Assembly: GCA_037952775.1 (NCBI GenBank)
Contig: JBANAY010000003.1
Location: forward strand, 124,001-188,000
Length of the DNA stretch: 64,000 nt
Reading direction: 5' to 3'
From: Clonostachys chloroleuca
Lineage: Eukaryota > Ascomycota > Sordariomycetes > Hypocreales > Bionectriaceae
Shown here: positions 468-34,402 of the stretch, piece by piece
How positions within the stretch are numbered: the first letter of the stretch is position 1
How the letters are laid out: each line of letters begins with the position of its first letter
Notes under the pieces: model-generated
The model's database searches: none
The model's input: only the letters and a program-made list of their open reading frames with translations
Told to the model about the DNA's origin: nothing
Position numbers and translations under genes: made by a program

Positions 468-2929
468 ATGGGCGGCACAAAGCGCTCATCGGCGTCCGAA
501 GCGCACGAGGCGTCCAAACGACGCGCGCCCTACGCTCCGCGGGCTTGCGATGCCTGTCGTCGACGAAAGGGTCGTTGCAATGGACAGAAGCCATGCGGAT
601 ACTGCCTGGGTCGCGTCATGGAATGTTGCTACTCACACAACCCGGAGGAGCGCCGATCGAATACGGCACAAAATAACAAAGATGCTCAAGACCAAGCTCC
701 AAAGCCAGCGGACTGGGCACCAAAGTAAGCCGTCTTGGCCAGCGGATTTCTCAAAGCGTTACTAATGTGTTCTTAAATCGGACAGTGCAATCCAGTCACT
801 AACCGACCTGGTCGCCACATTGCAGGGACAGTTGAATGCCATCGCAGCACACACCAACGTCTTCCCCGCCGGAAATGGGAGCCTTGACAATCTAGAAGGG
901 ATGGAGCCAGTTTCGCTTAAACAGGTCCAAAGCTTTCCCGTCAGTGGCATGTTGCCTGTCCCAACAATCCCCCCGGCAGTCTCGAAACGTACATCGCAAC
1001 GATTCTACGGGCCAACGAGCCCTGACTACAGTCTGAAAGCCGCCCAGCGACGGGTGCAACAGATGGAGGGCAGTGACACAAGCCCAAGCGGTCAAACGGT
1101 TTCCACCCTCGATGATGACCAGAGCGAAGACGACGAAGAATCCAGCCCCAGCGTGACTGGTCAAATCGCAAATGCCCATTCGATGGGCCACGTACGAAGC
1201 ACAGCGCCGTTGCAATTTCTGGCTCTTTTCACGAGGCACGAGGCCATGCGCCTCATCAAGGTATACCACGAAGCGATTGGCGAGCTTCATCCCATCTGCG
1301 ACATTGATAAGCTCCTAGAGCAAATGGAGTGGCTGTACAGCTGGTCAAATGGCACACGGGAAGAGATTGATCCTACGGTAGACGAGGACGCCATTTTGAT
1401 TCTCAACCTTGTCTTATCTATTGCCTTGTGCGCCGAGGAGGCCTCGAAGTCCTTTGCGGCTGGTGCACTCTACAACAGCTATCGCGATCTTGTTGTTGCG
1501 AGGCAATCAACGCCGGCTGTCAACATTCGGCATGTCATCATCGCCATACTGGAGGTTTGCGCCCCTTGTCCCCCCTCCTGGGAAAGCCTATTATCCTGAC
1601 ATCTGGACTCATTACAGGGCTTCTTCCATTTCTACATGTGTAGCCCCCGTTTGGCTTGGCGAATGATTGGACTGGCTGGCCGCATCGCCATGGAAATGGG
1701 GTTCCATAGCCTGGACGTTTGCAAAGAGTATATCCAGACTGATCGACAACGCGCCGAGGTGTCCATCATCTCCTGTACCATAGTCATTTTGGACCGGCAG
1801 TGGAGCGCGGCCACGGGCTTGCGACCAAACTTTCAAACCTCAGATTTTGACATGGCACAGGCATCTTTGGTAGGAAAGATCCCAGACGCTCTCTCCGTGG
1901 ACTATAGACGGACCCTTGGTCAAGTGGACTAACTCATCTTTACAACAGGTCGATACGCCCTATTTGAAAGCCATGATGGCATTCACACTCGTAAGCGACA
2001 ATTTCAACGAGCCCATCGCCCGAGCCGCTCGAGGAAACATGTATGTGGATGATGATGGCCTCGAGGTAGCTGCATTCCAGATCAAGCAGTGGCGAAAGCG
2101 AGCTCTGGAGAATCACAACTTCATACACCCAAACGAATGGTCCGATTCCACCCCCAAGCCTCCAGCTTGGACACTGGTCCTTTATCTTCGATCTATTGCT
2201 GTCCAGGGCATCCTGCTCCGTTCATTTTTTCTTGCCAACCCAGACGTAACCGACGTGAAGAAGATCAAGATCGGCTTGAAGCTTGTATCAGACTCAATTG
2301 GGGTCCTCTCCATCCTGGATAAGACAACGAATATATACAGGCTGCAGCATCCACATTTTCAACACTTTTTGTCGACCTCGTGCGCCCTATTGTTCCTCAT
2401 CGTAGCATATACAGAACACAAGAGAGCAACCTCGTCACCGGAATTCCCGAACGACTATGCAGAAACAGTCGGCTCAAATTTCGAGGCTGCACTCAATCTC
2501 TCGGCCGCCTACAGAAGAACATTCCGGCAGTCGCACAAGCTTTGGAAGCGCATAATCGCTATGAAAGAACCTCTGATTCGCCTGAGCATTCTACCTAATG
2601 AAGCCCGACGTGAAGGAAAAGCTGCATTCAGCGGGCCAGTAGCTGTTACTGAGGTCCCAATAGACCAGAGGAGTCAGAGCAGCGAGATGTCTTTGAAACC
2701 ATCCGACAAGGGCTCGTCGTCCATGTTAGACCCAGTCATCACAGACGAGGATTGGGTAGAATTCGACATGCAGTGTGGGCCTCAACGTAGTAACTTGAAC
2801 GTGATGGGTGCATTGCCCGCTGCCATTGCCGACAGCGACTCCACCATGGATGTGCTTGATCCGCTCTTCCTGGACTGGCCCATGTACGCGGCGCCTACGC
2901 AGAGGTTCTTTTCGGAGAGCACGTTCTAA
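468..2929 (+). CDS. Zn2Cys6 fungal-specific transcription factor (regulator 1)
   Basis: Nuclear DNA-binding regulator, about 752 aa from four exons: 468-724, 786-1554, 1618-1869 and 1949-2929. The exon sum is in frame. A binuclear zinc cluster lies at about residues 27-52 (ACDACRRRKGRCNG, then CGYC and a final Cys), followed by a basic, acidic-serine linker. The fungal_trans middle domain follows at about residues 240-500, with a typical RMIGLAGRIAMEMGFHS helix. The third intron uses donor GTAGGA at 1870 and a CTAAC branch site just before acceptor 1948. The gene sits at the left edge of the aromatic catabolic cluster, next to the N-acetyltransferase, so it is a candidate pathway activator. 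That role is inferred from position only; the effector and target genes cannot be read from the sequence. Confidence 0.9.
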
Positions 2930-3536
2930 GACTACGCTCGAGCTCGCCTTGGTATCAATACTACTACATCGCAGCAATACTACAACTATCAAGAGACAAA
3001 CAGAACTTGTCCATCACACAACAGCAATACAAAACAATTGAATATGATCCATGAGGCGAGAAACACTGGTTTGCTAGCCAGGCCTAGCGCCTATGCGGGA
3101 AAGAACAATACATCCACACAGGTAGTATAGCCGCAGTTGGTATCTCCCAGAAGGAAGCTCGCTTATTACCCGGATCGTGATTACAAATCACAGTCTGCAT
3201 GCATATCACCCGAAATGCGGGTCGATTGGAACTCGCTGTCATTTCGGGGACCTCGGGAGGGAGTCGGGGCTAGTTCCGGATACCTAGGAGGCACAGAGAA
3301 GATAGAGACAGTGTCCGTATCCATGATGGGAGTGGTTTCATACTGTACTATATTGATCAGTCCCGCTGTGTCCCTACCCGACGTCAACGAAGGCACCGTC
3401 CTCAGTGATGAACTAAACTCGGATAATGTGCACTAAGGAATATGTTCAGAACGACCGTAAATACTCACTCCAACGCGTCGGCTAACGCTTTGGCCAACAG
3501 CCAAATACACGACACGTAGCAAGGAGAGCAAACACA
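2930..3536. other. Intergenic region between regulator 1 and NAT gene
   Basis: About 600 bases without a convincing gene. It contains GC-rich CGG-type motifs at 3241-3281, including TTCCGGAT at 3274-3281, a near match to the palindrome found in other promoters of the cluster. It probably holds the terminator of the regulator and the NAT promoter. Confidence 0.45.
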
Positions 3537-4517
3537 ATGATAGGCAAGAGGACCTACAATCAACAGGAGCTGAACGCTTATTTCTCCCGTATTGCGCTTC
3601 CTTCCAGGCACCAAAAACAAGATGTGTCTTCGTGGACGCCTCAGGAGCAGTTACAATACCTAGGCCTACTTCAAAAGCATCAGCTCATGACCGTTCCGTT
3701 TGAAAATCTCGACCTTCATTACTCATGGAACCGCGTTATTCACCTAGGTGCAGATCATCTCTTCCGGAAAATCGTGCTGAGTCCGGGCCGGGGAGGCTAC
3801 TGCATGGAGAACAACTCGCTCTTTCATTTTGTGCTTTTGTCTCTAGGGTTCAAAGCCTACATGGTCAGCGCGCGAGTATACGATAGCGCCAAATCATCGT
3901 ACGGAGGCTTTACACACTGTCTAAACATTGTCAGAATCGGTGACTTGAGTTACGGTGTCGATGTCTGCTTTGGGTCGCATGTGCCTGTGCATCCGTTCAA
4001 ACTAACGGAAGGCTTGGTGCAACAGCATCTGCCACCAGGCCAACTAAGATTACGGTACGACTCGTTGCCTGGTGGGCTCTCAGCACAGAAGCTATGGATA
4101 TACGAGCAAAGGATCACCGATACGTCGACTTGGTCCCCATTCTACTGCTTTGCCGATTTTGAAATCCTGCCTCCTGACTTGGCGGTGATGAATCTATGGC
4201 CGTCTAAGCAACCCTCAAGTTTCTTCACGTACAAAGTGATGCTTGTGCGATTCACAACAGAGGATGAGTTTTACTACCCAAGCCTTGATGAAGAGCTCAA
4301 CACCCCGCCTAACCCTGGGGCTAGAGCTGGCGATATTGACGGGCAGCTGATACTGGATGGGCACACTATGAAATGGCGGAAACAAGGTATTAAGCAATGG
4401 GAGATTGTTTTGAAGAGCGAGACGGAGCGAATTCAGGCCTTGAAGACGTGGTTCAACATCAGTTTATGTACAGATGAGCAGAATGCGGTCCTGGGAACAG
4501 CGGCAGCAATATCTTGA
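3537..4517 (+). CDS. Arylamine N-acetyltransferase (NAT)
   Basis: Cytosolic enzyme expected to transfer an acyl group from acyl-CoA to arylamines through a cysteine intermediate. It is an intronless frame of 326 aa, slightly longer than bacterial NATs (about 280) and usual for fungal ones. The catalytic triad is readable: Cys89 in RGGYCMENN, His127 in GGFTHCLN and Asp142 in YGVDVCFG. The N-terminal FENLDLHY segment is also typical of the family. In Fusarium, homologous NATs detoxify aminophenols derived from benzoxazolinone, so a role in an aromatic catabolic cluster fits, but the substrate here is unknown. The gene converges on the flavin prenyltransferase gene with only 28 bases between the stop codons. 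Confidence 0.92.
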   Translation: MIGKRTYNQQELNAYFSRIALPSRHQKQDVSSWTPQEQLQYLGLLQKHQLMTVPFENLDLHYSWNRVIHLGADHLFRKIVLSPGRGGYCMENNSLFHFVLLSLGFKAYMVSARVYDSAKSSYGGFTHCLNIVRIGDLSYGVDVCFGSHVPVHPFKLTEGLVQQHLPPGQLRLRYDSLPGGLSAQKLWIYEQRITDTSTWSPFYCFADFEILPPDLAVMNLWPSKQPSSFFTYKVMLVRFTTEDEFYYPSLDEELNTPPNPGARAGDIDGQLILDGHTMKWRKQGIKQWEIVLKSETERIQALKTWFNISLCTDEQNAVLGTAAAIS

Positions 4518-4545
4518 TCAAGAATCTGTTGGTCGCGAGCTAAAA

Positions 4546-5382
4546 TTACATTGCTGCAGCCATTGGCTCTGCCTCCGCTATTGGCCGTGCTTGCCCCCTT
4601 TTAGGCTTTTCAAATCCATTCCACCTTGCAAAATCATCCGTATATATCTCAAAGCAGTCCAGCATCCTCCCGACACTTTGCATGATAATATCATCTAATG
4701 AGTTTGGCCGCGTATAAAATGCAGGAACAGGAGGGAAAATGATGGCGCCTGCACGGCGGAGAAATAACATGTTATCGAGGTGAATATCACTCAACGGCGT
4801 CTCTCTCACCGCCAGCATTAGCTTCCGGTTCTCTTTGATTGAAACATCTGCAGCTCGGGATATAAGGTCGTCGCAATACCCTGATCGGATAGCCGCAAGA
4901 GTCTTCATGCTGCAGGGCAGCACGGCCATGCCATCGTGGATGAAAGATCCGCTGGCTATGGGAGCCGACATATCCTTGGCCGTATATACTCGGGAAGCAA
5001 GGGCATGAATTTCATATTCCGTCAAGGATGTCTCATACTTCAGCGTCGCTAATGCCCACTTGCTCATGATGAGATGAGTCTCTACACCGAGATCACGAAG
5101 CACTTTTAGCATATGAACTGCAAATAGAGCGCCTGTGGCACCGGTGATGCCAATAACAATTCGTTTTGGGCGACAAGCCTTGGGTTCTGACGTTCCGTAT
5201 ATCCGATTTTGTGATCGTGCGTTGGTCTCAACTTGCAAGGGCAATCGTACGCGTCCAGCTTGACTGGAGCTGTGAGATTGCCGCTGCGATGGTGATTGAA
5301 ATTGGTCAACTTTCCCCAAGACTGAGGGTTGTGAACCAAGGCGCCCATACAATAATCTTGGACAACGGTTGAATCGATACAT
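4546..5382 (-). CDS. PAD1: Flavin prenyltransferase, UbiX/Pad1 family
   Basis: Makes prenylated FMN, the cofactor required by UbiD/Fdc1-type decarboxylases. Single exon, 278 aa. The first 65-70 residues are rich in Arg, Ser and Gln and poor in acid residues, consistent with a mitochondrial presequence as in yeast Pad1. The catalytic flavoprotein domain follows, beginning with IVIGITGATGA at about residue 72, with the family segments MSKWA, SGSFIHDGMAVLPCSMKTLA and the C-terminal VPAFYTRP. It is divergent from the UbiD gene at 5725 and shares a 342-bp promoter with it, which is the expected partnership of cofactor maker and user. The call is secure at family level; targeting is inferred. Confidence 0.93.
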   Translation of the reverse strand: MYRFNRCPRLLYGRLGSQPSVLGKVDQFQSPSQRQSHSSSQAGRVRLPLQVETNARSQNRIYGTSEPKACRPKRIVIGITGATGALFAVHMLKVLRDLGVETHLIMSKWALATLKYETSLTEYEIHALASRVYTAKDMSAPIASGSFIHDGMAVLPCSMKTLAAIRSGYCDDLISRAADVSIKENRKLMLAVRETPLSDIHLDNMLFLRRAGAIIFPPVPAFYTRPNSLDDIIMQSVGRMLDCFEIYTDDFARWNGFEKPKRGQARPIAEAEPMAAAM

Positions 5383-5724: not shown

Positions 5725-7331
5725 ATGGCCACCTTGAACACCACAGACGACATCACAACGAAGGCCCAGCTGGACTTCCGCACGTTCATCGACCTTTTAC
5801 GACAAGACAATGACTTGGTAGAAATCGATCGCGAGATTGACCCTTACCTCGAAGTCGGTGCCATAGTCAGACGGGTCAGCGAGACCAACGACAAGGCGCC
5901 TTTGTTTAACAACATCAAGGGTGCCCAGAAAGGCCTATGGAGGATGTTTGGGAACGCCGCGAGTCTTAGAAGGGATGAAAAGGAAAAATACGGAAGGGTT
6001 GCCCGGAACCTTGGCCTCTCTAGCGACTCAAGCTGGTCTGACATCTGCGTCAGAATTCAAGCAGGCAAGCGAGCCACGCCGCTTGCACCCAACGTCTTGT
6101 CATCCGGGCCTTGCAAGGAGAATAAAATATTTGGTGATGAGATTGATCTCAACAAATTGCCTGTGCCAATGCTTCACATGGAAGACGGTGGAAAGTATCT
6201 TCAGACATACGGCATCCATGTCTTGCGTACCCCTGACGGCTCATGGACCAATTGGTCGATTTTCCGCGGCATGGTTCACGATAAGAACCACCTTGTCGCT
6301 CAAGTGAATCCTCGCCAGCACAACTATGTTGTAAGAGAGAAGTGGAGAGAGGCCGGTCATTCAGAGGTCCCATGGGCGTTGGCGCTCGGCGTGCCACCGG
6401 CAGCGACAATGGCGGCCGCCATGCCCATTCCGGAGGGAATATCCGAAGGTGAATACGTTGGATCAATCGTTGGAAAGCCCTTGGACCTCGTCAAATGTGA
6501 ATTGAGCGATCTGCTGGTTCCTGCCAATAGTGAAATCATCCTAGAGGGCACCACGTCACTGACAGAAACTGCCTACGAGGGTCCGTTTGGAGATTATCTG
6601 GGCTACGTGTTTGACGATGATCGTCGTCTTATGCCGCTATTCAAAATCAACGCGATTACATATCGTAACGATGCCATTTTGCCGGTTTCTGTACCTGGTA
6701 GAATTACTGACGAGTCGGTAAGTGCCTCACCATGCCCTCATTGTGTTTCCTTTCATCTTGTTTCTGGCAAAAGGCTGACCATGGGTCCTGAAGCACACCA
6801 CTGCAGCGATGGCTGCTTCCGAAGTACTCGAATTCTGCAAGAAGCATGGGCTGCCAATCAAGGATGCCTATGCACCCCTCGAGACGCATGCGACTTGGTG
6901 TGCCCTGCAGGTTGACACTGATGAGCTACGTAAACTGCAGACCAACTCTAGAGACTTCTGTATGAAGCTTGGAGGGCTCTTGTTTCACAAACAAGTCTTC
7001 AATGCTCATCAATAGGTTCTTGGTTGTTGGGGATGACATCAATATTTACGAATTCAAGGATTTGATATGGGCGTTCGTCACACGCTGTCGTCCTGGGAAT
7101 GATGAATATTTGTTTGATGATGTGCCTGGATTCCCTCTTACACCTTACATGTCTCACGGTACTGGCAGCAAGACACGTGGTGGCAAGTTGATATCGGATT
7201 GCCTATTCCGCATGGAGTACACAGATGCGAATAGTTTCCGACCAGTCAACTTTGATACTTCGTATCCAAGCTCTGTGAAGACAAAGATTGAGTCTATGTG
7301 GAAAGAGCTTGGGTTTTTGGGCCAAGATTGA
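5725..7331 (+). CDS. UbiD-family decarboxylase (Fdc1-like), one-base frameshift in exon 2
   Basis: Prenyl-FMN-dependent reversible decarboxylase of aromatic or alpha,beta-unsaturated acids. Exons are 5725-6717 and 6794-7331, with a clean intron whose join reads GRITDES|HTTAAMAASEVLEF. Family landmarks include TNWSIFRGMV (the active-site Arg region) and ETAYEGPFGDYLGY. The family acid after EGPFG is Asp here, where Fdc1 has Glu282. From VDTDELRKLQ to GLLFHK the protein is in one frame, but the conserved continuation NRFLVVGDDINIYEFKDLIWAF is one base out of phase. A single surplus base near 6985-6995 explains this: removing it gives exactly 509 aa, the normal family length. This is either an assembly indel or a recent null allele. 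The partner UbiX gene is divergent next door. The substrate is not determinable. Confidence 0.85.
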
Positions 7332-7750: not shown

Positions 7751-9560
7751 ATGGCTAACACTTTGCAGTCGAAAATTGACAAGGCTGCTGTTAACTTCAA
7801 GATGAGAGATGAATCAGTTGTGCCGGTTGACAAAATTTCGGTTGATGATTTGGATCACGTCACGTCTATTGCGAATGGACAAGGAGAACAGTGAGACAGC
7901 CCCTATCCTTAGAATGTTACCTCCTAATCATAACCTAACATTTGGAACTGTTAGGGCCTTTATCGCAGATGCGGCTTCTGATTCCAAATTGAGGTTGAAG
8001 ATTGACTTGTATATTCTGCCAATGGTCACCATCATCTATTGTTTGTCACACCGTCACCCGCCCCGCTAATGGGCGTATGGAATTCCGTACTAATAATGAC
8101 AATTCGACATAGTGCTCTGCTTTATTGACCGCGCAAACATTGGTGAGCCTTTTCATTATCGGATTTCTCGAGTTGAAGCAAGCTTACACTCTCATAGGCA
8201 ACGCGAGAATTGCTGGTCTGGAGGCAGACCTCAATATGAAAGGGTACGATTTTAACATTTGTCTGTCAGTTTTCTACATCTCGTACATCATCTTTGAGAT
8301 TCCAGGCAACATTCTCTGTAAGATTATGGGCCCAGGCTGGTTTATCCCAGCTTGTTGCTTGGGCTTTGGCATATGCACGATTTGCACCGCTTTTGTTCAA
8401 AGCTTTGCCGCTTTATGTGGCCTCCGCTTTGTATTAGGCATTTTCGAGGCTGCAATGTTGCCAGCCACAGTCTATTACTTGTCGAGGTGGTACAAGCGGG
8501 ACGAGCTTACGTTCCGACTCTCTTTTTTCATCATCTCCGCCTCATTATCTGGTGCTTTCGGTGGTCTTCTCGCTTCAGCGATATTATCCATCGGTCGGAT
8601 GGGTAGCATCACTTCGTGGAAGATGATATTCGCTATAGAAGGTTCGTCATTCTTTCTTCAAGCATCGATGTCATGCCTATGTAGTATTCTAACATTTGCT
8701 CGCAAGGCATTGTCACAGTTGGATTCGCGCTGCTCGGCTTCGCTGTCATGACGGATCGAGCAGAGACTGCTATCTGGCTCTCGAATGCGGAAAAGGAGCA
8801 AATATCGGCTCGCATCAAGGCGGAGCGCATTGGCACAACCGAGGTTCTGGACAAGTTTGACAGGAAGAAATTCAAACGCGGCATCTTTAACCCAGTCGTG
8901 CTGGCCACCTCCATGACGCTTTGCTTTAACAACATCACGGTCCATGGCTTGTCATTTTTCTTGCCGACCATTGTGAAAACAATCTTCCCAGACAGGACTG
9001 TTAGAGATCAACAACTCTTGACGGTTCCCCCCTATGCGTTGGGAACAATTACTTGTCTCATAATCTGCTATCTGAGCTGGAAAATGGACAGGCGAACTAT
9101 TTTTCTCATCCTTTGCCCGCCTTTTTCCATCATTGGCTACAGCATGTTCCTGGCTTCGACAACCGCTCATGTCAGATATGGAGCCACATTCCTTCCTGTT
9201 GTGGGCATATTTGCTGTCGGGGCACTCACCAATTCCCATGTCTCGGCAAACGTGGTTTCGGACACTGCCAGGTCATCTGCTGTGGCTACCAACGCTATGT
9301 TTGGTAACATCGGTGGATTGGTCTCGACTTGGGCCTTTTTGCCGTTCGATGGGCCCCTTTACCCAATTGGAAATGCTTTAAATCTGGGTGTTCAAAGTGG
9401 CATTTTTGCAGTTGCCCTGGGCATGTACTTCTGGATCAATCGCAACAACAAAGCCAGAGCTCAGAGGGATGCCGAGGCCGAACTGGCCGTAAAACATTGC
9501 TGGAAATTCAAGATCTTGACTGGAAACACCCTGGGTTCCGATGGCACAACTGAAACGTAG
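7751..9560 (+). CDS. MFS permease, anion:cation symporter (Dal5/Tna1-like) family
   Basis: Plasma-membrane uptake carrier, probably for an organic anion such as an aromatic carboxylate. Five exons (7751-7890, 7955-8040, 8113-8142, 8198-8641, 8707-9560) join in phase to 517 aa. The first ATG in frame, at 7751, is used. A hydrophilic N-terminus of about 60 residues leads to KIDLYILPMVTIIY, then the split motif CFIDRANIGNARIAGLEADL, the ACS-family signature after helix 1. About twelve hydrophobic segments follow, with a central charged loop (about residues 250-290) and the usual late motif NVVSDTARSSAVATNAMFGNIGG. Exon 3 is only 30 bases. It lies between the UbiD and FMO genes, which suggests import of the pathway substrate. 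Family members carry allantoate, nicotinate, pantothenate or phthalate-like acids, so the substrate is open. Confidence 0.9.
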
Positions 9561-21378: not shown

Positions 21379-22974
21379 ATGGGTGGTCTTCCTAATGGCA
21401 ATCACACCAAGACCCATTTCGGAACCAATCTTCCTCTCATTGTTGATGGTAAAGATGTCACAACAGAGAACGTCATTTCTGTCATTAGCCCTCTGACCGA
21501 TAAAGAAGTGTGGACAGCATCTGCTGCATCTACAAAAGAAGCTCTTGATGCGGTGACGGCGGCTGAAAAGGCATTCCCAGCTTGGTCTAAAACAAAACCC
21601 TCTGAAAGACGTGACCTTTTCTTGCGCGCAGCAGAACTGTTCTTGGAGAGAAAAAAGAACTGCAGACAATCATTCATCACGAAATTGGGGCCGACGAGCA
21701 TTATCAAGAGTTCATCATTGGCCTAGCTGTCGAAGGACTGAAAGACACCGCTGGCAGAATAGCGAGCGCGGTCGAAGGCCACGTTCCAGCTTCTATTCAT
21801 GATGGCATGAGGGCTTTGATCCAGAAAAAACCATATGGTGTCGTCTTGGGGATTGCCCCTTGGTAAGTTTTCAGGCCAGCACAACCATCTGTTATCCACT
21901 AATACTCTAGTCAGGAACGCGCCGTATCATCTTGGCCTAAGGTCTATCAGCTTCGCTCTTGCAGCTGGAAACACGACAGTTCTCAAGGGTTCCGAGCTCT
22001 CTCCCCTCTGTTACTGGGCCATTGCCGACATATTTCGCCGAGCTGGGTTACCAGATGGGTGTTTAAATTTGATCCTTCACCGGCCGCAAGACGCGGCGGA
22101 GGTTACGAGCGCGCTGATTGCCGACCCTCGCATCAGAAAAGTCAACTTCACCGGAAGCTCAGGCGTAGGCAGCATCATTGCAAGTCTTTGTGGTCAGCAC
22201 CTCAAGCCAGTTCTTCTGGAGCTCGGTGGAAAGGCAAGCGCCATAGTTATGGGCGATGCGGACCTGGAAAATGCCGCAAAGCATTGCGCTCTTGGAGCTT
22301 TCATGAATGTGAGATATAGCCCTCTAATTTCGTTCCCGAACTAGTTGATCAAAGCGTTATTGCTAATTTTAGCCTAGGCGGGTCAAATATGTATGTCGAC
22401 GGAACGAGTTGTGGTACATGCATCAGTTGCCTCCAAGTTTCAGCAGCTCTTTGCCGAAGCCGTTGACAGACACTTTTCTTCGGCTACTAATAAGCCAGCT
22501 CTGATAACATCTGCTTCTGCCAAGAGAAACAAGGATCTTGTGCAAGATGCACTCTCTAAGGGCGCGCAGCTGCTGCATGGAGACAAAGGGTCGACTTCTG
22601 CAGAAGGTGATGTAGCAACGAAAATGTCCGCAACAATTCTTAGTGGCATCAACGAGGACATGAAACTGTACGCAACGGAATCGTTCGGTCCTAGTACTTC
22701 ATTACTTGTCTATGATTCCGAGGAAGAAGCTTTACGTTTGGCAAATGATACCGAGTATGGTCTGTCGGCAGCAATCTTCACTAATGATCTCGGGAAAGCC
22801 TTTCGATTTGCTGATGGCCTGGAGTCTGGCGCTGTACACATCAATTCCATGACTGTACACGATGAATTTGCTCTTCCTCATGGGGGAGTCAAAAAGAGTG
22901 GTTATGGGCGGTTCAATGCTTCCCAAGGCTTGGATGAGTTCTTGTACTACAAGTCAGTGACTTGGATGGAATAA
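21379..22974 (+). CDS. NAD(P)-dependent aldehyde dehydrogenase, frameshifted in exon 1
   Basis: Oxidises an aldehyde to the acid; closest in motif to salicylaldehyde/vanillin-type aryl aldehyde dehydrogenases. Exons 21379-21862, 21915-22308 and 22378-22974 give 491 aa once a one-base loss in the A-run at 21651-21656 is allowed for. Before it the frame reads FLRAAELFLERKK; after it ELQTIIHHEIGADEHYQEF continues in the other phase. Motifs: N of the oxyanion hole in IAPWNAPYHLGLRS (split by intron 1), VNFTGSSGVG, catalytic Glu in LELGGKA, catalytic Cys in GQICMSTERV just after intron 2, and C-terminal HGGVKKSGYGRF. The likely role is oxidation of the aryl aldehyde made by the upstream decarboxylase. 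Confidence 0.88.
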
Positions 22975-24184: not shown

Positions 24185-26020
24185 ATGAGGTTCCTCAAGA
24201 GTAAGTCCACAGTGTTCGGCCGGTAACTGTGAAATCTGGCTAACGTTCTCGTCTCTTGCAGTGGCCTCTAAAAAACCAACCGCCGTGTCGATTGAAGACC
24301 TTGCCATCGTCCCCACGAACGCCCAGTCGATTGTGGAGGTAGGCTATTGCCACCTATATCTTCTTGGAGACTTCTAGTTAATACTGCAAATAGACGTATA
24401 AGAACTTCAACACGCTCTCCATACTTTCCCTCGCCGTGTCCCTTATGGCAACATGGGAAGGACTCCTGAGCACATTTGGTCAAGGCCTCAATGCAGCCGG
24501 TCCTGTGTCATTGGTCTATGGGTTCATCGGTACGGTCTATTAGGTCACCCTTGATCAAGTATGAGAGGGCACATGCTAACCGTGTTTTCTTTTCTTAGTT
24601 GCGTTCATCGGCAGCACTGCGACCGCCGCGTCCCTATCCGAACCAGCGTCGAGGTTTGTTGTAGAATTGAAACGCCCGAGGCTTCATCGAACTGATAATG
24701 CTGTCCAAGGTACCCTACGGCCGGCGGCCAGTACCACTTCATGGCCATGCTGAGCTCCGACAAGCATCGGCCTTGGCTCAGTTGGTATGCGGGCTGGCTG
24801 ACGATTCTCGGTTGGCTCGCGTTGACTGCCAGTGCCCCTTTTGCTGGAGGAACTCTGATCCAGGGCCTCGTGACGCTCAACTACCCGGATTACGTGCCCG
24901 AGAGGTGGCATGGGACTTTGCTCTATCTCGCTATTCTTGCTATTGCCTTTGCCCTCAACTTATGGGGAAGCAAGCTGCTTCCACTGATAGAGAATGTCAT
25001 CATGGCTTTGCACATACTCTTTTTCTTCGCCATACTCATCGCCGTTGCGGTGCTTCCCCGCAATAGGAACTCTGCGAGCTTTGTGTTCACAAACTTCCAA
25101 AATAACACAGGTTGGGAGACTGACGGAATAGCATGGTGTATAGGACTTCTGACATCCGCCTACATTACAGTCGGTCAGTGGGCTGCTACCCTGCCTGGAG
25201 CTTAGGATTACTTGACTGGCTGACTCTGGATTATTGCTCAGGTTATGACTCTGCGACTCACATGTGTGAAGAGATGAAGAACCCTACAATGGGGGTACCA
25301 CGTGCTATGATAGGGTCCCTCCTCATCAACTGCACCATGGGATTTGCTGTGCTAATTGCTGTCCTATTTGGTATTGGAGACATCAATGAGGCGCTTGCAT
25401 CTCCAACTGGATTCCCCATTATCGCAGTGTTCACGGACATGACGCGTGGAAATACGTCAGCGAGCTCAGCCATGGTCTGCACCATTATTATATCCGCATC
25501 TTTGGCCACTGTCGGACTGATCGCTTCGACATCTCGATCATTGTGGGCATTTGCTCGTGATGATGCTCCGCCGTTTAGCCCTTGGCTCGCCAGACTTGAT
25601 AAGAAGCGCCACACTCCTTCTAATGCAGTAATTTGCTGTTCAGTTTTCCTGGCTCTCTTGGGCTTACTCAACATTGCATCTACGACTGCATTCACTGCCA
25701 TTCTGTCGCTTACCGTGGTTAGCCTGAGCTTGTCCTATGTGCTGCCGATTATTGCTATGCTCTATCGTCGAATCGCAAATGTCGAGAAGATCTCTTTTGG
25801 GCCTTGGCGAATGTCGCCTGTTCTGGGCACTGTTTTAAATATCGTTGCAATTTCTTACAACATATTCCTCTGTATCTTCCTTCTGCTGCCTCCTATTCAA
25901 CCAGTCACGGCTCAGGACATGAATTATGCTAGTGCTGTTCTTGGAGGGGTCTTGATTTTCATCACTGTCGACTGGTTCATTCGAGGACGAAAGGTGTATA
26001 GTGGACCTCAATATCTCTAG
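24185..26020 (+). CDS. Amino-acid/GABA/choline permease, APC superfamily
   Basis: Plasma-membrane uptake carrier of the fungal amino-acid/choline transporter group. Six exons (24185-24200, 24262-24338, 24394-24529, 24599-24653, 24710-25173, 25242-26020) join to 508 aa. The first exon encodes five codons only. About twelve hydrophobic segments are visible. Family marks are SLSEPASRYPTAGGQYHF after helix 2-3, the segment YDSATHMCEEMKNPTMGVPRAM around the sixth helix, and SRSLWAFARDDAPPFSPWL. The motif set fits GABA, choline or related amine transport. Its presence suggests that the cluster substrate, or a nitrogen-containing precursor, is amino-acid-like, in line with the NAT gene. The substrate is not resolvable. 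Confidence 0.9.
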
Positions 26021-26232: not shown

Positions 26233-28987
26233 TTATAGAATATCTGCTGACCATGCATTGTCGTCGAACCATCGTTGAAAGTCATTACTTAGAGAAGGAT
26301 CGAATTCCAGGTTCTGAATTAAGCCGATACTGTTATCAAGTGCCATTCCCTCCAATGGTAAATCGGTATTAATGCTGACAAGCCCATTCTTGTTTATTAG
26401 GATATGAGGTTGAGATGCTGATAGATTTGCATAGGTGGCTGTTGTAGACGGCGTAGCTAGAACCGAAATTATGGCCGTGAGCAACAGAACGACAATGAAA
26501 TAAAATGCAGATAGAAGCTAAGCTTACCCCATTCCTTGACCACTCGTTGTAGATCTTGGAGGTACTTGATACATCCGCTGAGAAGTTGATTATCTTGGTC
26601 CAACTGCAAGAGTGCTTCGATAGCTTGTCCCAAGATATGCTGCCCCATCTCCAATTGACTGACGCTATCTACGCTGACATTATTATCGGCTTTGGGCACG
26701 AACAAGCTCCCAAAAACTAATAAACTTGCGTTGAAGACTGCGAATGGAAGTTAGTTGTTGCACCGATTGACAAGGAAGGGTTTTTGAAGTTCTAACCGTA
26801 GTAGAGAGTAAACCACCAAGCGCCCAGGAAATGCCTTCCAAGGTCCGGCCGAGTCAATACGCCGTGGGCAATGAATATCATTTTCCGAGCATAGACTGTG
26901 CAGCTGTCACTGAGATTCAGTTGCATTTGGCTAATGGTATGCTGTGACAGCGACGAGTCAAAGTCTGTGCTGAGTAGTTTGGTGAGAACAGGCCGGTATA
27001 GCAAAAGCTGGGCATGGAGGTATCTCATTGTCAGCACGAATCTGTACCTCTCCCCCACGGGATTACTGCTATCGACATTTAACATATTTTCTGGCGTGAC
27101 TAGACTCAAGCCGGGACCTAGTGAGTCTTGCCACTCATTCAGCTCATGCTGAATGAGAAAGATCTGTGTGATCATGTTGGTGCCAGATGTCTCCTCGCAT
27201 CCCAGGTTATGCCCATAAAGGCTGCCCATGATGTGCCATAGAATCTTGTAGAGTGAGCTAACTTCATTAGTTCAATGTTGGTAATCTTTTGGCCGAGGCA
27301 CTCGCTTTGGTTCTACTCACACAGTTCCAGCGAAGAACGATATCCCAGTACGATCAATGTGATCACCTTGCACAAGCTGTGGAACGTCCAGGCGCACATA
27401 ATCATCCGGTATCGCACTTGGACGCCCAAATGTCATGCTAAGATGTCTAGAAGATGGTCAGCATGCGCTGAATTGCCTCGAGGAGGCAGCCGCGTCACCT
27501 GTCAAGAAGAACACAGCTGAGCCATGTCCGTTTCCCCATCTCCTGCTCAACATCTGGCAATCTGCGCAATGCTTCTTTGGAATGGATCCCTATTGACATG
27601 GCTGCTTTGACTGCCAAACCGTGCACGGCCCATGTTTGGACGGACTGCTGGGTTCCTTGGAGGTACTGGCTCGTCAAGAGGAGAAATTGCACTTGCGTGG
27701 ACAATGTCAGAAATGGATTGGTCGACATTGGAAAGTTTCCCGTTTCTTACCCGTCTCCAAGCTAGTTCCGCGCTGCATCGACTTTCCACAAAGCTCTTGG
27801 GCGCGTTGATAGAAGATGGCAGATTCAAAATGCGAAGTCGTCTCAGCAGTGCTTTGCCGCCCGCTCTCACTCCAAGCTGCCATCGCAAGTACCATGTTCA
27901 AGAGTCCCAGAAATGTTCGGCGCACGTTGCCACGAAAGTTTTGCTCGCAAATGTGACTATAAGTCTCGACAAAAGTAGGTTTATGGATGTATGGAAATAG
28001 CATGCCGGTATTTGAGAAGTATCGGTTGACTAACTGCTCTGTTTGCTCATGAGAGGGTAGGATGTTGCATCCTCCCGGACTTGACGCATCTCCGCTCGCA
28101 GTACACACATTTGGCGATTCAGGGAATGCTCGAGCAAGATTGATGGCGCTGGTGCGGTTTGCATCGGCCGGGTTCTTGAAGCCTGCGATGGCATTATTCA
28201 TATTGGTAGCCCGCTTGTATGCCACTGCACGGAATATTGTGCGCATCAGGGCGATGTTCGACGTAGGTCCTGGAGAATTTAGTATGTGTCGATAGAAGGT
28301 TTCAACGCTAGAAACGAAACGCACCAAAGAAGCTGCAGTCTTCATCTTTTACCAGAGACATTGCCATCCCGTCAGTCTTGTCGTGCTGTGACTGGGCGTC
28401 AGTCTCAAGAGGGTCTTGAATGCTAATAACAATCATGCCGGGGGGCGCGGATATTGTGCGTTCCCCATTCCTTTCCTCACTGTTATCAACCGACGAAGGA
28501 GCCTTGGTGCCTTCATCTTTGCTTGACGGGCCTGTATGATTAGATTGTCTCCTCAACTGCCTCTCAACCGCCTCTACTCTGGCTTCAAGAGCAGCAAAGA
28601 TACTGGCAGGGCTTTAGCGACTTAGGCTAGCTGAGGTAGATGGAGTTACCCAACTCTGGTTGGACTTGGGGCACCTACTCTTTGCCAATAATGAGATTGG
28701 ATGATGAATTGGGCATCTCATAGGTACACTCGAAGCCCATCCGCTCACACAGTGAGCATTTCGGGCGCTGACCATTGCACTTCCGACCCATTATCTGCAG
28801 TCAGCACTTGGATCTCGGGACCAACATTCTGGCTTAAGAGACACACCCTCGATTTGCGCGTGCGACAAGCACTGCACGCCAAGGCAATACGCCGTCGCTT
28901 GCCATTGTTTGGCCCGCTCTCTTCTTGATGATTATCCTCGTGTGTGCTCTCAACGGACGGACTTGCGCTGCTGCGGCCTCTCCACAT
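26233..28987 (-). CDS. Zn2Cys6 fungal-specific transcription factor (regulator 2)
   Basis: Nuclear regulator of about 747 aa from nine minus-strand exons: 28987-28847, 28779-28679, 28602-28325, 28269-27751, 27691-27499, 27437-27321, 27257-26797, 26737-26528 and 26456-26233. Their sum is a whole number of codons. The zinc cluster is split by intron 1: ACSACRTRKSR | CNGQRPKCSLC, with a last Cys before TYE. A short heptad-like linker, IFAALEARVEAVERQLR, follows at about residue 80. The fungal_trans domain includes FFGPTSNIALMRTIFRAV, LFPYIHKPTFVETY, RGTSLETVQFLLLTSQYLQGT, VKAAMSIGIHS and MTFGRPSAIPDDYVRLDVP, which is the xylanolytic-activator type. It lies inside the catabolic cluster between permease and ring-cleavage genes and is the best candidate for its specific regulator. 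Confidence 0.92.
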
Positions 28988-29824: not shown

Positions 29825-30922
29825 TCACGCGAACTCGACCCCGTTACGAAGTGTTCCAATCTCACTGACGCTGACCTCCATCTTGGTCCCAGGGACAAGG
29901 TAACGCGGGGGCTTCAGTCCTGCACCAACTCCTGCAACAGTTTCTGTTAGTGTGTCTGACTCAGTTGTGCAAATAAAGCATCATGCACCCGACGTACCTC
30001 CTGGTGTACCGGTCATAATGATGGAGCCTTTCTGGAGGGTCGTGCCTGTAGAGAGATAGGAGATGAGGTACGGAATACTGAAAAGCAGGTCGTCAAGCCC
30101 AGAAGACTGTCGTAATTCTCCGTCGACGACCGTCTTCAGCTGCAATTTAGCTGGGTTTGGAATTAGAGCCGAGCTGACCAATACTGGGCCAAGAGGTGCA
30201 TAAGTGTCGAAACCCTTTGAGAAGCCCCATTGTGGCACAGGGCCTGCAAGTGTGCTGTCACGCTGCAGCTTCCGGCTAGAGATATCGTTACCTACGGTGT
30301 AAGCCGCAACGAAATCGAGAGCATCAGCCTCAGAGACATCCTTGGCATCCTTTCCAAGTACCACACACTGTAGAAGTCTTAGTAGGCGATTTCCAAAGTT
30401 TCCCACAACATGCACTTACTAGCTCGCCTTCATAGTCTGCTTGGTCGTCCTGAGCAACTTTTGGCACAACAACGTTTGCGCCGTGGTCTAATACTGCAGG
30501 GGACCCTTTGCAGAACATGAAAGGGTATGTTGGTGGTTTTCTTCCCGTCTCACGAACTTCAAATGAATTCACCGGTAAGAAAAGAATGCTAGCGAACAAG
30601 ACACAACCCAGCGGCTGCGCCAGTAGATGAATGAGGTCAACTTACTGTGGGTTGCGTAGTTTAGTCCAATGCACCTGATAATTGGAACCTCTGATGGTTC
30701 TACAGGTCCTAGAAGTGTCTTTACGGTCACGACTTCGTCTGTCACAGATGTCTGCCCAGACGTGTCATAGAGATCTTTACCGGCGATAACTTTGGCTTGC
30801 AGTTTAGTGCTTTCATCTGTCCTGCCGAGGTCGAAGTCAGGTGTTGGTAAGATTGGTTGTCCTCGCAATGTTCGCCCATCAGTGGCGATGAATCGGATGG
30901 CGCGATCCCATGAAACCTTCAT
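29825..30922 (-). CDS. Fumarylacetoacetate hydrolase (FAH) family protein, likely fumarylpyruvate hydrolase
   Basis: Metal-dependent hydrolase of acylpyruvates. Four minus-strand exons (30922-30646, 30556-30420, 30367-29998, 29931-29825) join to 296 aa. Motifs: IRCIGLNYATH|IRETGRKPPTYP across intron 1, the metal-binding acids in DYEGEL, VAAYTVGNDISSRKLQ, KGFDTYAPLGP, and the C-terminal MTGTPGGVGAG. It is divergent from the gentisate 1,2-dioxygenase-like gene and shares 450 bp of promoter with it. In the gentisate pathway the ring-cleavage product is hydrolysed by exactly this family, so pairing with the dioxygenase supports fumarylpyruvate or maleylpyruvate hydrolysis. A maleylpyruvate isomerase gene is not visible in the window. 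Confidence 0.92.
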
Positions 30923-31372: not shown

Positions 31373-32562
31373 ATGGCAACTCAGACGATTAGCGCAAGAA
31401 TCCAGAACGGAAATTCTCTTCCGGAGAATATAGCTGTAAAGGGCAACAATGGCTCTCACAAGTTTGAGACTGGCGAAGCCTTGGTTGAAGCTCTTACGGA
31501 TGTTAACGTACTCCCTCTATGGGCGCAGATGGCAAGACTCAACCCTGCGCTTCCAAACCCAACTACCAAGCCCTTCATTTGGGAGTATGAGAAGATCCGA
31601 CCATACTTGGTGAGCGCTGGTGAGCTCATCAAGGAAGAGCAAGCTGAGCGACGAGTTCTTATGCTAGTCAACCCCGAAAGAAGTATGCATAAAGAGACAA
31701 CCGTAGAGACATACTCATAATATACTGACACACACATAGCTGCTCCTTATACTACCGACACACTGTACGCTGGACTGCAGCTGGTTATGCCACGAGAGAC
31801 GGCTCCTGCCCATCGCCATTCTGCCTTTGCCGTGCGCTTCATCATTGAAGGGCAAGGTGGTTTCACAGCTGTGCATGGTCGCCGCGTCGAGATGAGACCT
31901 CGCGATGTTCTTGTCACACCAACATGGAACTGGCATGATCACGGCAAGAAAGGGGCAGGAGAAAAGGGCGGTGATGACTCCCCCGTCATCTGGCTCGATG
32001 GCCTGGATCTGCCCGAGTTCATTCACTTCCCAGTCCACTTCAACGAACACTACTCGGCTTCGCGATATCCGGCCGAGAATGTTGATAACTCGCCAATTGT
32101 CTTCCCGTGGGACAAGATGCAAAAGAAGCTCGATAGCCAGACGTCGGCGTGGGCCCAGGCACGTTATTTAAGAGAGAATGGTTCTGAACGTAAGTCACTG
32201 AGGGAGATGATCACTTCCAGGAGTCGAAGAATGCGTGTATAAGTACTAACCTTTCCGAAGTGAGTAAGACAATTGGAGCATGCGCTGAGCGCATCGAGGC
32301 CAAGTCCGAGTCGCCATCAATCCGCGAGACTTCATCAGCAGTCTACCATGTCATTGAAGGAAGCGGTTATTCGCAAGTAGGGGATAAGAAAATACACTGG
32401 AAGGCTGGTGATACATTCTGCATTCCGGCATGGTATCGCTACCAACACTTTGCTGGCGATGAGAAGGCTTACCTATATCGTTTTGATGATCATCCTATGC
32501 TCAAGGCACTTGGATTTTACCGCTACGAAGGTCAAGACTCTGAATCACTGGTTTCGGAATAG
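31373..32562 (+). CDS. Gentisate 1,2-dioxygenase-like bicupin
   Basis: Fe(II) ring-cleavage dioxygenase opening gentisate to maleylpyruvate. Exons 31373-31682, 31740-32189 and 32261-32562 join to 353 aa, the usual size of the family. The catalytic first cupin shows [19 protein letters not shown], which supplies two of the iron-binding His, and [10 protein letters not shown], with the third. The second cupin ([26 protein letters not shown]) is structural. The N-terminal part has [16 protein letters not shown], typical of gentisate dioxygenases. The first in-frame ATG downstream of the leader, at 31373, is chosen. It converges on the P450 gene with 164 bases between them. The related 1-hydroxy-2-naphthoate and salicylate dioxygenases share this fold, so the exact substrate is inferred from the neighbouring hydroxylase and FAH hydrolase. 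Confidence 0.92.
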
Positions 32563-32726
32563 ACATGACCTTGCTAGGGGACCCCATTCCTTATTATTCA
32601 CCGAGACTAGTCGAGAACAAACATTGCATCGAACACCATTTAGCCAGTGCTGATCCTTTAGATATGACATAAGTGACCATTATGATAAGGTCTTATCTGA
32701 GAACAGGCATCGATTATCATCAGTCA

Positions 32727-34402
32727 TCACTCCCCGCCCGCTTGCTGCCGCTCTTTAAGCTTCAATACAGGTCCATCGTGAAGAGACGTAAACACATCAT
32801 AGAGTTGGAACTCATCTTTCCTGCCTCTGCCATCCTTTCTACCGACAGTACCAGCGCCAATCTGGCCTTGCGGTCCAGGGGCGATCTCCAGGTCAAAGTA
32901 ATACAATGTTTTGGCCATGGTCAGGCTGATTTCGAGATAGGCCACTGCCTTTCCAGCACAGGATCGACCACCCACCCCAAAGGGAGCAAATGCGCGCCGC
33001 ATCAATGATGAAGAGTCTCTTCCTTCAGCTGTCAGCCACCTTTCCGGAATGAACTTGAAAGGGTCTGAGAAGTATTCCTCATTATGATGCAGAGCGTATA
33101 TGTTAACAGCAACCTGACTTCCACTGGGGATGACATGACCGTCAACCACAAGAGGAGGGTCTTCTTTGCCACCGTCGGCCAGCTTTTTTGGTGGGATTTT
33201 CTCACGCCATAGCATGCCTGGAGCAGGGGGAGACATGCGCAATGCCTCATCGATGCAGGCTCGGAGGTATACGCAATCTCGGAGTGCCTTTCCAGAATGA
33301 ATATCCTCACCGGATTGAAAATGAGTTCGTATCTCTTCATTCAGCTTTTCATAGACTCTTGGATAGCGTGTCAAGTAAAAGAAGAGCGCAGCCATGGCGG
33401 TTGCTGAAGTGGCACCTCCAGCTACAACGAAGAAGAAAGCTTCAGCCCACAGCTCACTGTTGATGAGGCTTGTGCCACCTTTCATACTGTCCGCGGCATA
33501 TGCATAAAGATCTCGCTTGGCATCTTTAGGCATGCTGGTGCGATTGACGATCATCTTCCCAATGATGCTCCTGTACTTGTTGCGAATCTTGCTTCCCAGT
33601 ATCTTCAGGGCAGGCTCAATGAAGGCTAACTTGGGAAACTGCATGTAGATATTAACACGCACATTGACAAAAGACAATCCCCACATCAACCACTGATTAG
33701 TTTCCTCTGTCTGCATCTTGAGCGGGTATCCAAATCCGAGATGCCCTACTACGTCCCCCCCAAGGTACTCGAGACGTTTCGTCATATTGATTGGCTCCGA
33801 CAGACGGCATGACTTTCGCAGCTGCTGGACAAATGTGTCGATCTGTTCTGCCATTGTAGGTTCAAAGTCCCGCATGGCTTTCTCTGAGATGGGCTGGCTG
33901 ATGATCTTTCGCTTTCTACGATGCTCGTCGACTTCAGGAGTATCGAAAACATTTCCCAAAGGTGTCATTCGTGTCAGGACATAAACTTCGGACTTTGTCA
34001 CCAAGGGGTTCGCGTATATGTCTAAGAATAGGTTAGCATTGTGTTTTAGGTCGCAAAGCCTTGCTAGTATTTACCTTGAACTGCCGTGATCGTATTGAAA
34101 ATTAATCTATTTGGACCATACCGTACCACAGGGCCGAACTTGACATGGTTTTCGTAACTTGCCAAATGGCCGCGTCTCCTTATAGCTTGTATGCCGCCAT
34201 AGAGATTGGTCACTTTTGCGAGAAAAGGCCCTGGGATATTCTTGAATGGATGAAGGAAAAGGCGACGGGAGAAGAGTAAGAACAGCTGTCCCTATGTCAA
34301 TCAAAATACACCCAGACACTGCGAGTGCTTTGGACTTACCCATGCGATGAGCAGATAGAGAAAATATGTCCCTACTACACCTACAATACCCGTCCAAGCC
34401 AT
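32727..34402 (-). CDS. Cytochrome P450 monooxygenase
   Basis: Membrane-anchored haem monooxygenase of the endoplasmic reticulum, 524 aa from exons 34402-34340, 34291-34075 and 34021-32727. The N-terminal helix (IVGVVGTYFLYLLIAWGQLFLL) is followed by NIPGPFLAKV. The I-helix has VAGGATSAT in place of the common AGxDT, the K-helix ExxR is EALR, PERW is present, and the haem loop is FGVGGRSCAG with the ligand Cys. Its sequence does not show the CYP53 benzoate hydroxylase pattern that I would expect, so I do not assign a family. It lies at the right edge of the catabolic cluster, converging with the dioxygenase, and may hydroxylate the aromatic ring or side chain. Confidence 0.88.

What the first reader, a model, noticed from the sequence alone, without database searches (positions are those of the whole stretch)
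468..34402. A large fungal aromatic catabolic cluster that combines four decarboxylation/ring-cleavage modules
One contiguous block encodes UbiX plus UbiD, a thiamine-diphosphate decarboxylase, an aryl-type aldehyde dehydrogenase, a salicylate/3-hydroxybenzoate-type hydroxylase, gentisate dioxygenase, FAH hydrolase, a BBE-like oxidase, an FMO, a P450, an NAT, two importers and two regulators. Gentisate clusters are known in yeasts (monooxygenase, dioxygenase, hydrolase, carrier), but I know of none with this full set. A coherent route is: aryl-2-hydroxyacid to arylglyoxylate to aldehyde to hydroxybenzoate to gentisate to maleylpyruvate to organic acids. The UbiD and NAT steps would add acid and amine substrates.
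Basis: partly seen in the sequence, partly recalled or inferred. Interest (0 to 1): 0.85.

Follow-up and report, generated by a model that had tools for sequence, protein, structure and literature searches.

The report
Twin-decarboxylase gentisate cluster in Clonostachys
A soil fungus carries, near a chromosome end, a known ring-cleaving gene set joined to an uncharacterised pair of decarboxylases that recurs together in other fungi, which offers a testable candidate for how fungi shorten the side chains of plant aromatics.

Summary
The genes are there and the edges (468-34402) hold. The genome is a Clonostachys, most likely C. chloroleuca; the site is 124 kb from a contig end. UbiD, FAD monooxygenase and aldehyde dehydrogenase change reading frame (the second regulator too, by coding model): assembly error or decay, I cannot tell.

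The block is two things joined. Right: the known fungal gentisate set (regulator, FAH, dioxygenase, P450). Left: UbiX, UbiD, a ThDP decarboxylase and an aldehyde dehydrogenase. ThDP and UbiD relatives share a contig in 14 other records, six with tag numbers 2-6 apart; the dioxygenase joins both in Cephalotrichum and Periconia. The UbiD belongs to a clade apart from Fdc1/CdcA, with Asp for Glu in the catalytic network. The ThDP enzyme is PRK08327-type; two own-genome paralogues and four betaproteobacterial relatives sit with 2-hydroxyacid and aldehyde dehydrogenases, which favours 2-oxoacid decarboxylation. Fusarium verticillioides has a published cupin-FAH-ALDH-UbiD neighbourhood, so the combination is not unprecedented.

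The parts
468..2929 (+). Zn2Cys6 regulator 1 (TF1)
   Evidence: Zn_clus above cut-off, Fungal_trans just below; 3' end from the ORF ending at 2929; my raw model fused it with NAT and was split by hand
3537..4517 (+). arylamine N-acetyltransferase family enzyme (NAT), read as one ORF
   Evidence: PF00797 1.2e-38; ORF 3537-4517; best solved relative 7qi3 arylamine N-acetyltransferase
4546..5382 (-). UbiX/PAD1-type flavin prenyltransferase
   Evidence: TIGR00421 255 bits over cut-off 108.9; 68-72% to the UbiX part of two Chaetothyriales UbiX-ThDP fused models
5725..7331 (+). UbiD decarboxylase, Glu-Arg-Asp type; reading frame changes between about 6969 and 6994
   Evidence: Pfam UbiD; 243 of 462 aligned positions identical to an A. 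niger Fdc1 chain; D at position 282; frame change by tblastn with P0121 and L042_3
7751..9560 (+). MFS importer (allantoate-permease-like; subfamily recalled)
   Evidence: PF07690
10437..12206 (+). FMO-type flavoprotein
   Evidence: FMO-like, Pyr_redox; weak matches to BVMO/FMO structures
12692..14260 (-). BBE/EncM-like FAD oxidase (FAD_binding_4)
   Evidence: nearest structures an FAD-binding oxidoreductase and EncM
14717..16735 (+). ThDP-dependent decarboxylase, PRK08327 family
   Evidence: NF006203 528.7 bits over cut-off 456; 97% to Bionectria ochroleuca
17119..18103 (-).
   Evidence: adh_short_C2; 51% to the SDR beside UbiD in own-genome locus L042
18616..20078 (+). FAD_binding_3 aromatic monooxygenase; reading frame changes near 19494
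   Evidence: solved relatives; frame change
21379..22974 (+). aldehyde dehydrogenase; reading frame changes near 21636, at an A run
   Evidence: Aldedh; 60-65% over two pieces to the ALDH fused to ThDP in Fusarium/Cylindrodendrum models
24185..26020 (+). amino-acid permease family importer
   Evidence: AA_permease_2
26233..28905 (-). fungal regulator 2 (TF2); frame change near 27529 by coding model only
   Evidence: Fungal_trans; 41% over 185 residues to the regulator of own-genome gentisate cluster L044; zinc-cluster region by tblastn
29825..30922 (-). FAH-family hydrolase
   Evidence: PF01557; 74% to L044 FAH
31373..32562 (+). gentisate 1,2-dioxygenase
   Evidence: cupins; TIGR02272 250.3 bits, below its cut-off 442.1; best solved relative 2d40 putative gentisate dioxygenase; 97% to a C. 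rosea protein
32727..34402 (-). cytochrome P450
   Evidence: PF00067; P450 beside the dioxygenase as in the published Scedosporium cluster

Best explanation
A catabolic cluster near a chromosome end in which the ordinary fungal gentisate cluster (regulator 2, FAH, gentisate dioxygenase, P450) is continuous with a separate recurrent unit, the 'twin decarboxylase' unit (UbiX with a Glu-Arg-Asp-type UbiD, a PRK08327-type ThDP decarboxylase, an aldehyde dehydrogenase, and an SDR). Most likely working: UbiX makes prenyl-FMN for UbiD, which removes CO2 from an unsaturated or aromatic acid; the side chain is oxidised (FMO, BBE-like oxidase, SDR; inferred) to an aryl 2-oxoacid; the ThDP enzyme decarboxylates it to the aryl aldehyde; ALDH makes the benzoate; the FAD monooxygenase and perhaps the P450 bring it to gentisate; the dioxygenase opens the ring and FAH splits the product. 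Shown by sequence: families, UbiD clade, recurrent linkage. Inferred: order, substrates, and that the two halves are one pathway.
For: Families. ThDP and UbiD relatives on one contig: 15 of 46 listed ThDP hits of at least 65% identity versus 1 of 72 below 65% (118 of the 120 listed hits, of 3501 found); one of the 15 is this genome's own contig, where the two genes lie 30 Mb apart, leaving 14 of 45. In six of these the locus-tag numbers differ by 2 to 6 (Stachybotrys, Exophiala, Monosporascus, Neopestalotiopsis, Aspergillus nanangensis, Colletotrichum jinshuiense). Fused gene models: UbiX+ThDP in two Chaetothyriales, ThDP+ALDH in Fusarium and Cylindrodendrum. GDO shares the ThDP contig in 4 of 46, two of them with UbiD too, and in 0 of 72. 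Two paralogous ThDP loci in this genome have ALDH on one side and FMN_dh on the other (L041, L007). Of 80 prokaryote loci, ALDH matches in 24 and FMN_dh in 4; all four with FMN_dh also have ALDH and are betaproteobacteria among the closer relatives. Three anaerobe loci share a family whose L048 member is Ldh_2. A second gentisate cluster in the same genome shows that half can stand alone (L044: FAH 74%, GDO 68%).
Against: A second UbiX-SDR-UbiD-permease group in this genome (L042) has none of the 19 own-genome ThDP matches near it, so UbiD and ThDP can be separated. UbiD is found in only 1 of 80 prokaryote ThDP loci, UbiX in 2. Of the 24 ALDH matches some lie up to 9 kb away; within 5.5 kb one ALDH family covers 11 loci, and most of the 80 loci have no FMN_dh. 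Same-contig evidence on megabase contigs without locus tags does not prove adjacency. Three or four cluster genes have frame changes here. No expression or metabolite data. The Gtf1 motif GGAN7TCC is not enriched.
Confidence: 0.65

Rival explanations
1. One reading: aryl-2-hydroxyacid (mandelate type) to arylglyoxylate to aldehyde to hydroxybenzoate to gentisate, with UbiD and NAT as side entries.
For: ThDP relatives with 2-hydroxyacid dehydrogenase and ALDH in two own-genome loci and in 4 of 80 prokaryote loci; GDO on the ThDP contig in 4 of 46 records.
Against: No FMN_dh among the window's gene models; the ThDP protein is far below the benzoylformate decarboxylase cut-off (95.8 vs 493); UbiD relatives are linked to the ThDP gene in other fungi, so UbiD is unlikely to be a mere side entry.
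Confidence: 0.3
2. Two independent clusters that are neighbours only because chromosome ends collect accessory clusters; no common pathway.
For: Relatives of each half lie apart in the same genome (L044; L041; L042); two regulators; site near a contig end.
Against: GDO relatives share the ThDP contig in Cephalotrichum, Periconia, Bipolaris zeicola and a Phaeosphaeriaceae, on contigs of 35 kb to 1.26 Mb, and in none of the 72 more distant listed ThDP hits.
Confidence: 0.25
3. The cluster in this strain is a decaying relic.
For: Frame changes in UbiD, FAD monooxygenase and ALDH and, by coding model only, in regulator 2. The same scan found 4 in 39,293 coding bases of the window (UbiD's was missed, being modelled as an intron) and 4 in 49,078 of 17 other loci, three of these in one decayed ThDP paralogue, i.e. 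1 in 46,561 without it.
Against: Homology continues on both sides of the three changes tested; an uninterrupted 509-aa UbiD is deposited for another C. chloroleuca contig (P0121); one change is at a homopolymer; a polyketide synthase outside the cluster also has one by the coding model, which fits local assembly error.
Confidence: 0.2

Closest known systems
Gentisate cluster of Scedosporium (SAPIO_CDS0601-0605 plus regulator; PMC8283699, passages and outline seen)
   Same: P450 beside gentisate dioxygenase, FAD monooxygenase placed by its authors in the decarboxylating-hydroxylase clade, FAH, Zn2Cys6 regulator, MFS
   Different: The six-gene cluster as defined there has no UbiX, UbiD, ThDP enzyme, SDR or NAT
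Fusarium verticillioides BOA-induced region FVEG_03387-03405 (PMC10512309, section 9 part 1 and passages seen)
   Same: FAH, regulator, FAD enzyme, cupin, ALDH, transporters, allantoate permease and UbiD in one stretch; not all of them significantly induced
   Different: No ThDP enzyme or UbiX named in that table; a carotenoid-oxygenase-type gene is; the word gentisate does not occur in the text
Cinnamate/sorbate decarboxylation cluster cdcA-sdrA-padA of Aspergillus (PMC6776626, passages seen)
   Same: UbiX + UbiD + Zn2Cys6 regulator
   Different: A. niger Fdc1 is Glu-Arg-Glu type; the window UbiD is in the other, Glu-Arg-Asp clade with a different pocket; no ring-cleavage gene is named in the passages seen
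Bacterial mandelate operons (mdlB-mdlC-mdlD; recalled)
   Same: 2-hydroxyacid dehydrogenase, ThDP decarboxylase and ALDH logic, seen with PRK08327 relatives in four betaproteobacterial loci
   Different: The window protein meets PRK08327 and not the benzoylformate decarboxylase model
FDB1/FDB2 benzoxazolinone clusters of Fusarium (PMC4726666, abstract and passages; gene lists also in PMC10512309 section 9)
   Same: NAT (FDB2), FAD hydroxylase, amino-acid transporter and regulator in xenobiotic clusters
   Different: No lactamase or amidase domain found here; no UbiD, ThDP or cupin named in their gene lists

Membership tests
Fungal gentisate cluster | gentisate 1,2-dioxygenase | tested here: met
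   scores below the bacterial equivalog cut-off TIGR02272
Fungal gentisate cluster | FAH-family hydrolase and Zn2Cys6 regulator near the dioxygenase | tested here: met
   regulator frame changes by coding model
Fungal gentisate cluster | FAD monooxygenase making gentisate | tested here: inconclusive
   family present, frame changed, regiospecificity unknown
Fungal gentisate cluster | induction by gentisate or its precursors | not testable with these tools
   no expression data
UbiD decarboxylases | three UbiD domains and Glu-Arg-Glu/Asp network | tested here: met
   PMC5818171 abstract
Fdc1/CdcA cinnamate decarboxylases | Glu at position 282 and the Fdc1 pocket (A172, I187, M283, T323; pocket role recalled) | tested here: not met
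   D282, F172, N187, Y283, S323; tree splits 63 tips (62 Asp, 1 gap, with the window) from 53 Glu tips (with A. niger Fdc1), support 0.997 and 1.0
Benzoylformate decarboxylase | NCBIfam equivalog NF005485 cut-off | tested here: not met
   95.8 vs 493 bits
PRK08327 ThDP family | NCBIfam NF006203 cut-off | tested here: met
   528.7 vs 456 bits
UbiX flavin prenyltransferases | TIGR00421 cut-off | tested here: met
   255 vs 108.9 bits

The most novel reading that the evidence does not exclude
The twin-decarboxylase unit is the missing non-CoA side-chain shortening route of fungi: UbiD takes an arylacrylic acid (C6-C3) to a vinylarene (C6-C2); FMO, BBE-like oxidase and SDR oxidise the vinyl group to an arylglyoxylate; the ThDP enzyme removes the second carbon as CO2 to give the aldehyde (C6-C1); ALDH gives the benzoate, and with 2- or 3-hydroxycinnamates the product runs straight to gentisate. 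This would explain why the two decarboxylases travel together.
Probability: 0.15. Interest if true: 0.8.

Novelty: new variant of a known kind. Interest (0 to 1): 0.52.

Why it matters
[quoted passage not shown] niger (PMC12388069, passages), so how fungi get from vinyl compounds to benzoates is open. Two uncharacterised decarboxylase clades that are linked in fungi of several classes (class assignments recalled) give named genes with which to test that. The Glu-Arg-Asp UbiD clade is also a large little-explored set of likely prenyl-FMN decarboxylases with a pocket unlike that of Fdc1.

Tried and rejected
Considered and rejected: acetolactate synthase or another named ThDP enzyme (of the 25 of 43 NCBIfam families shown, only PRK08327 passes its cut-off); plain cinnamate decarboxylase for UbiD; chance open frames (family hits too strong); a common Gtf1-type promoter motif (GGAN7TCC is not above other spacers in intergenic DNA).

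Led nowhere: paper searches for a fungal benzoylformate/mandelate cluster (0 papers) and for vinylguaiacol-vanilloylformate routes (0 papers). Gluck-Thaler and Slot 2018 is not held; its anchor list is known to me through PMC10735191 passages. Structure prediction was not used. Synteny in named fungal genomes could not be read directly: no fungal contig collection was open, so linkage rests on contig lengths and locus tags in the protein listings.

Weak points to tell: the contig-length lists were typed by hand, each a list of the best 120 (of 3501, 2089 and 5035 hits); P0001 and P0002 have no contig and were left out. One search was a partial version of the same test and is superseded. The 'longest_contig' column is for a 90% cluster, not always for the named record. 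Records are not independent, so the Fisher values (1.6e-6 and 0.021, with the own-genome record still in) are descriptive. Eight of the 14 records have no usable tags for adjacency. The UbiD tree used 116 sequences: hits of at least 450 aa, the A. niger reference, the window and L042; the partial L002 copy was dropped. The UbiD position-327 gap could be an alignment effect. The A. niger chain is a Glu282Asp variant, so the 243 of 462 count includes that position. In one search one of four ALDH pieces was read in a wrong frame and matched nothing. The UbiX match in L042 holds two in-frame stops, intron or decay. The frame-change scan missed the UbiD change, so its control counts are lower bounds too.
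Full report
What is there. A gene finder trained on the window places sixteen genes in 468-34402, after I split one model at the regulator/NAT boundary and took two models as one regulator 2. Order: TF1 (+), NAT (+), UbiX (-), UbiD (+), MFS (+), FMO (+), BBE-like oxidase (-), ThDP enzyme (+), SDR (-), FAD monooxygenase (+), ALDH (+), amino-acid permease (+), TF2 (-), FAH (-), gentisate dioxygenase (+), P450 (-). Pfam supports the families, with two limits: the second half of regulator 2 has no Pfam hit, and the cupin is called a gentisate dioxygenase from NCBIfam and solved relatives. Just left of the window lie a dienelactone hydrolase and a protein with a sub-threshold SnoaL match, so the catabolic block may start earlier.

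Where it is. The window is G000:C3:124001-188000 of a 59.4-Mb genome in four contigs. C3 is 37,472,460 bases, the contig length listed for Clonostachys chloroleuca proteins V2G26_005086 and V2G26_015803; the first (P0011) is contained letter for letter in my model L041_3 and the last 200 residues of the second (P0129) equal those of L042_3. The window's ThDP protein is 97% identical to a Bionectria ochroleuca (= Clonostachys rosea) protein. The cluster therefore lies 124 kb from a contig end in a Clonostachys, most likely C. chloroleuca; that the contig end is a telomere was not tested.

Broken frames. tblastn with an uninterrupted UbiD (P0121, 509 aa, from another C. chloroleuca contig) matches the window at 97-99% in three successive pieces, the frame changing between about 6969 and 6994; L042_3 gives the same picture. 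The FAD monooxygenase changes frame near 19494 and the ALDH near 21636. For regulator 2 (27529) and a polyketide synthase outside the cluster (45506) the evidence is the coding model only. The same scan gives 4 changes in 39,293 coding bases of the window (it missed UbiD's) and 4 in 49,078 of 17 other loci of this genome; three of those four are in one decayed ThDP paralogue, so 1 in 46,561 without it. The excess in the window is suggestive, no more; I cannot tell local assembly error from decay.

The right half is the known gentisate cluster. Scedosporium has MFS, P450, dioxygenase, monooxygenase, FAH and regulator in one cluster, overexpressed on lignin and, apart from the MFS gene, on gentisate (PMC8283699, passages). 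Candida parapsilosis and Aspergillus terreus have related clusters (PMC8929692 passages; PMC7842363 section 8). This genome holds a second one at C1:2.82 Mb with a regulator 41%, FAH 74% and dioxygenase 68% identical to the window's genes, a monooxygenase and an ALDH (L044); no P450 was seen in those 10 kb.

The left half is a recurrent unit. In two Chaetothyriales records UbiX and the ThDP enzyme were annotated as one protein, and in Fusarium oligoseptatum and Cylindrodendrum the ThDP enzyme and ALDH were; their UbiX parts are 68-72% identical to the window's UbiX and their ALDH parts 60-65% over two pieces and 56% over a 27-residue piece. Matching exact contig lengths between the ThDP and UbiD listings (best 120 hits each; two ThDP hits without contig dropped) gives 15 of 46 ThDP hits at 65% identity or more with a UbiD hit on the same contig, against 1 of 72 below 65%. 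One of the 15 is this genome's own contig, where the genes are 30 Mb apart, so 14 of 45 count. In six of them locus-tag numbers put the two close: Stachybotrys 03557/03555, Monosporascus 006553/006550, Exophiala 05938/05932, Neopestalotiopsis 12737/12741, Aspergillus nanangensis 008845/008849 and Colletotrichum jinshuiense 001357/001361. The dioxygenase shares the contig in Cephalotrichum and Periconia (with UbiD) and in Bipolaris zeicola and a Phaeosphaeriaceae (UbiD not among the listed hits), 4 of 46 against 0 of 72. Thus linkage of UbiD and ThDP is frequent among close ThDP relatives, and the further link to the dioxygenase is rarer but present in two fungal classes (classes recalled).

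What the ThDP enzyme does. It passes the NCBIfam model PRK08327 (528.7 bits, cut-off 456) and falls far short of the benzoylformate decarboxylase model (95.8, cut-off 493), although benzoylformate decarboxylases are its best solved relatives. Two of its paralogues in this genome lie between an ALDH and an FMN-dependent 2-hydroxyacid dehydrogenase (L041, L007). A scan with an alignment of the family found 147 encoding stretches, of which the best 80 were kept; in these prokaryote loci 24 have an ALDH match, some up to 9 kb away, and 4 an FMN_dh match. The four (Herminiimonas, two Herbaspirillum, Pusillimonas) have the order FMN_dh, ALDH, ThDP. Within 5.5 kb one ALDH family covers 11 loci; three anaerobe loci share a family whose L048 member is Ldh_2, another 2-hydroxyacid dehydrogenase family. 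Most of the 80 show none of these, so the family is broad. The best reading for the window's member is a 2-oxoacid decarboxylase that makes an aldehyde.

What the UbiD is. It is close to Fdc1 (243 of 462 aligned positions), but at the third position of the catalytic network it has Asp, not Glu, with F172, N187, Y283 and S323 in place of A, I, M and T. On a tree of 116 sequences 62 Asp-type proteins and one with a gap fall on one side and all 53 Glu-type proteins on the other (support 0.997 and 1.0); all 15 contig-linked UbiDs are Asp-type, and the UbiD of the single low-identity pair (P0185) is Glu-type. In A. niger Fdc1 the Glu282Asp variant still decarboxylates cinnamate (kcat 0.63 against 9.4 per second; PMC5818171 passages), so the clade can be active, perhaps on another substrate. 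A second Asp-type UbiD with a UbiX match (two in-frame stops), a 51% SDR and an amino-acid permease lies about 100 kb from the other end of the same contig (L042); none of the 19 own-genome ThDP matches is near it.

How it most likely works. Shown: families, linkage, clade membership. Inferred: import of an aromatic acid or amino acid; side-chain oxidation to an aryl 2-oxoacid; ThDP decarboxylation; aldehyde oxidation; ring hydroxylation to gentisate; ring opening and hydrolysis. The place of UbiD is open. If it acts on an arylacrylic acid before the others, the two decarboxylases are consecutive one-carbon shortenings (C6-C3 to C6-C2 to C6-C1), which would explain their linkage; this is the boldest reading and is untested.

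Compared with what is known. The nearest published neighbourhood that I found is F. verticillioides FVEG_03387-03405, with FAH, regulator, FAD enzyme, cupin, ALDH, transporters and UbiD, partly induced by 2-benzoxazolinone (PMC10512309 section 9 part 1). Degradative-cluster surveys already use ferulic acid decarboxylase as an anchor gene (PMC10735191 passages). I saw no description of the UbiD-ThDP pairing in the listings of searches or in the papers opened; these cover only openly licensed papers, most seen as listings. Hence: a new variant of a known kind, of moderate interest, with one sharp open question attached.

Noticed in passing
window 38425-51284: A polyketide synthase (KS and AT domains in the first part; methyltransferase, enoyl reductase, KR and ACP only by eye) with an FSH1-type hydrolase and an MFS transporter lies right of the catabolic block; its frame changes near 45506 by the coding model. 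In F. verticillioides the UbiD/cupin region is also next to a polyketide (bikaverin) cluster (PMC10512309 passages).
   Followed up: partly
L125 (G000:C3:114001-124000) 6813-10000: A protein with a sub-threshold SnoaL match and a dienelactone hydrolase just left of the window, possibly part of the catabolic block.
   Followed up: partly
L042 (G000:C3:37369001-37379000): A second UbiX-SDR-UbiD-permease group about 100 kb from the opposite end of the same contig.
   Followed up: partly
L008 (G000:C3:19445819-19450150): A ThDP paralogue with 14 stops inside its match, probably decayed.
   Followed up: no
L043 (G000:C3:10185001-10195000): An uninterrupted relative of the FAD monooxygenase beside an Amidohydro_2 gene and an FMN_dh: another possible aromatic cluster.
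   Followed up: partly
window 12692-14260 and 4546-7331: In NCBIfam the BBE-like oxidase is nearest to BagG/FevA2, and UbiX and UbiD also match BagM/FevK and BagN/FevL, all below cut-off: proteins of the bagremycin/ferroverdin pathway, which I recall makes vinylphenol.
   Followed up: no
L107 (Halobellus rufus): An archaeal ThDP relative with UbiX, UbiD and ALDH matches in the same 20-kb locus.
   Followed up: no
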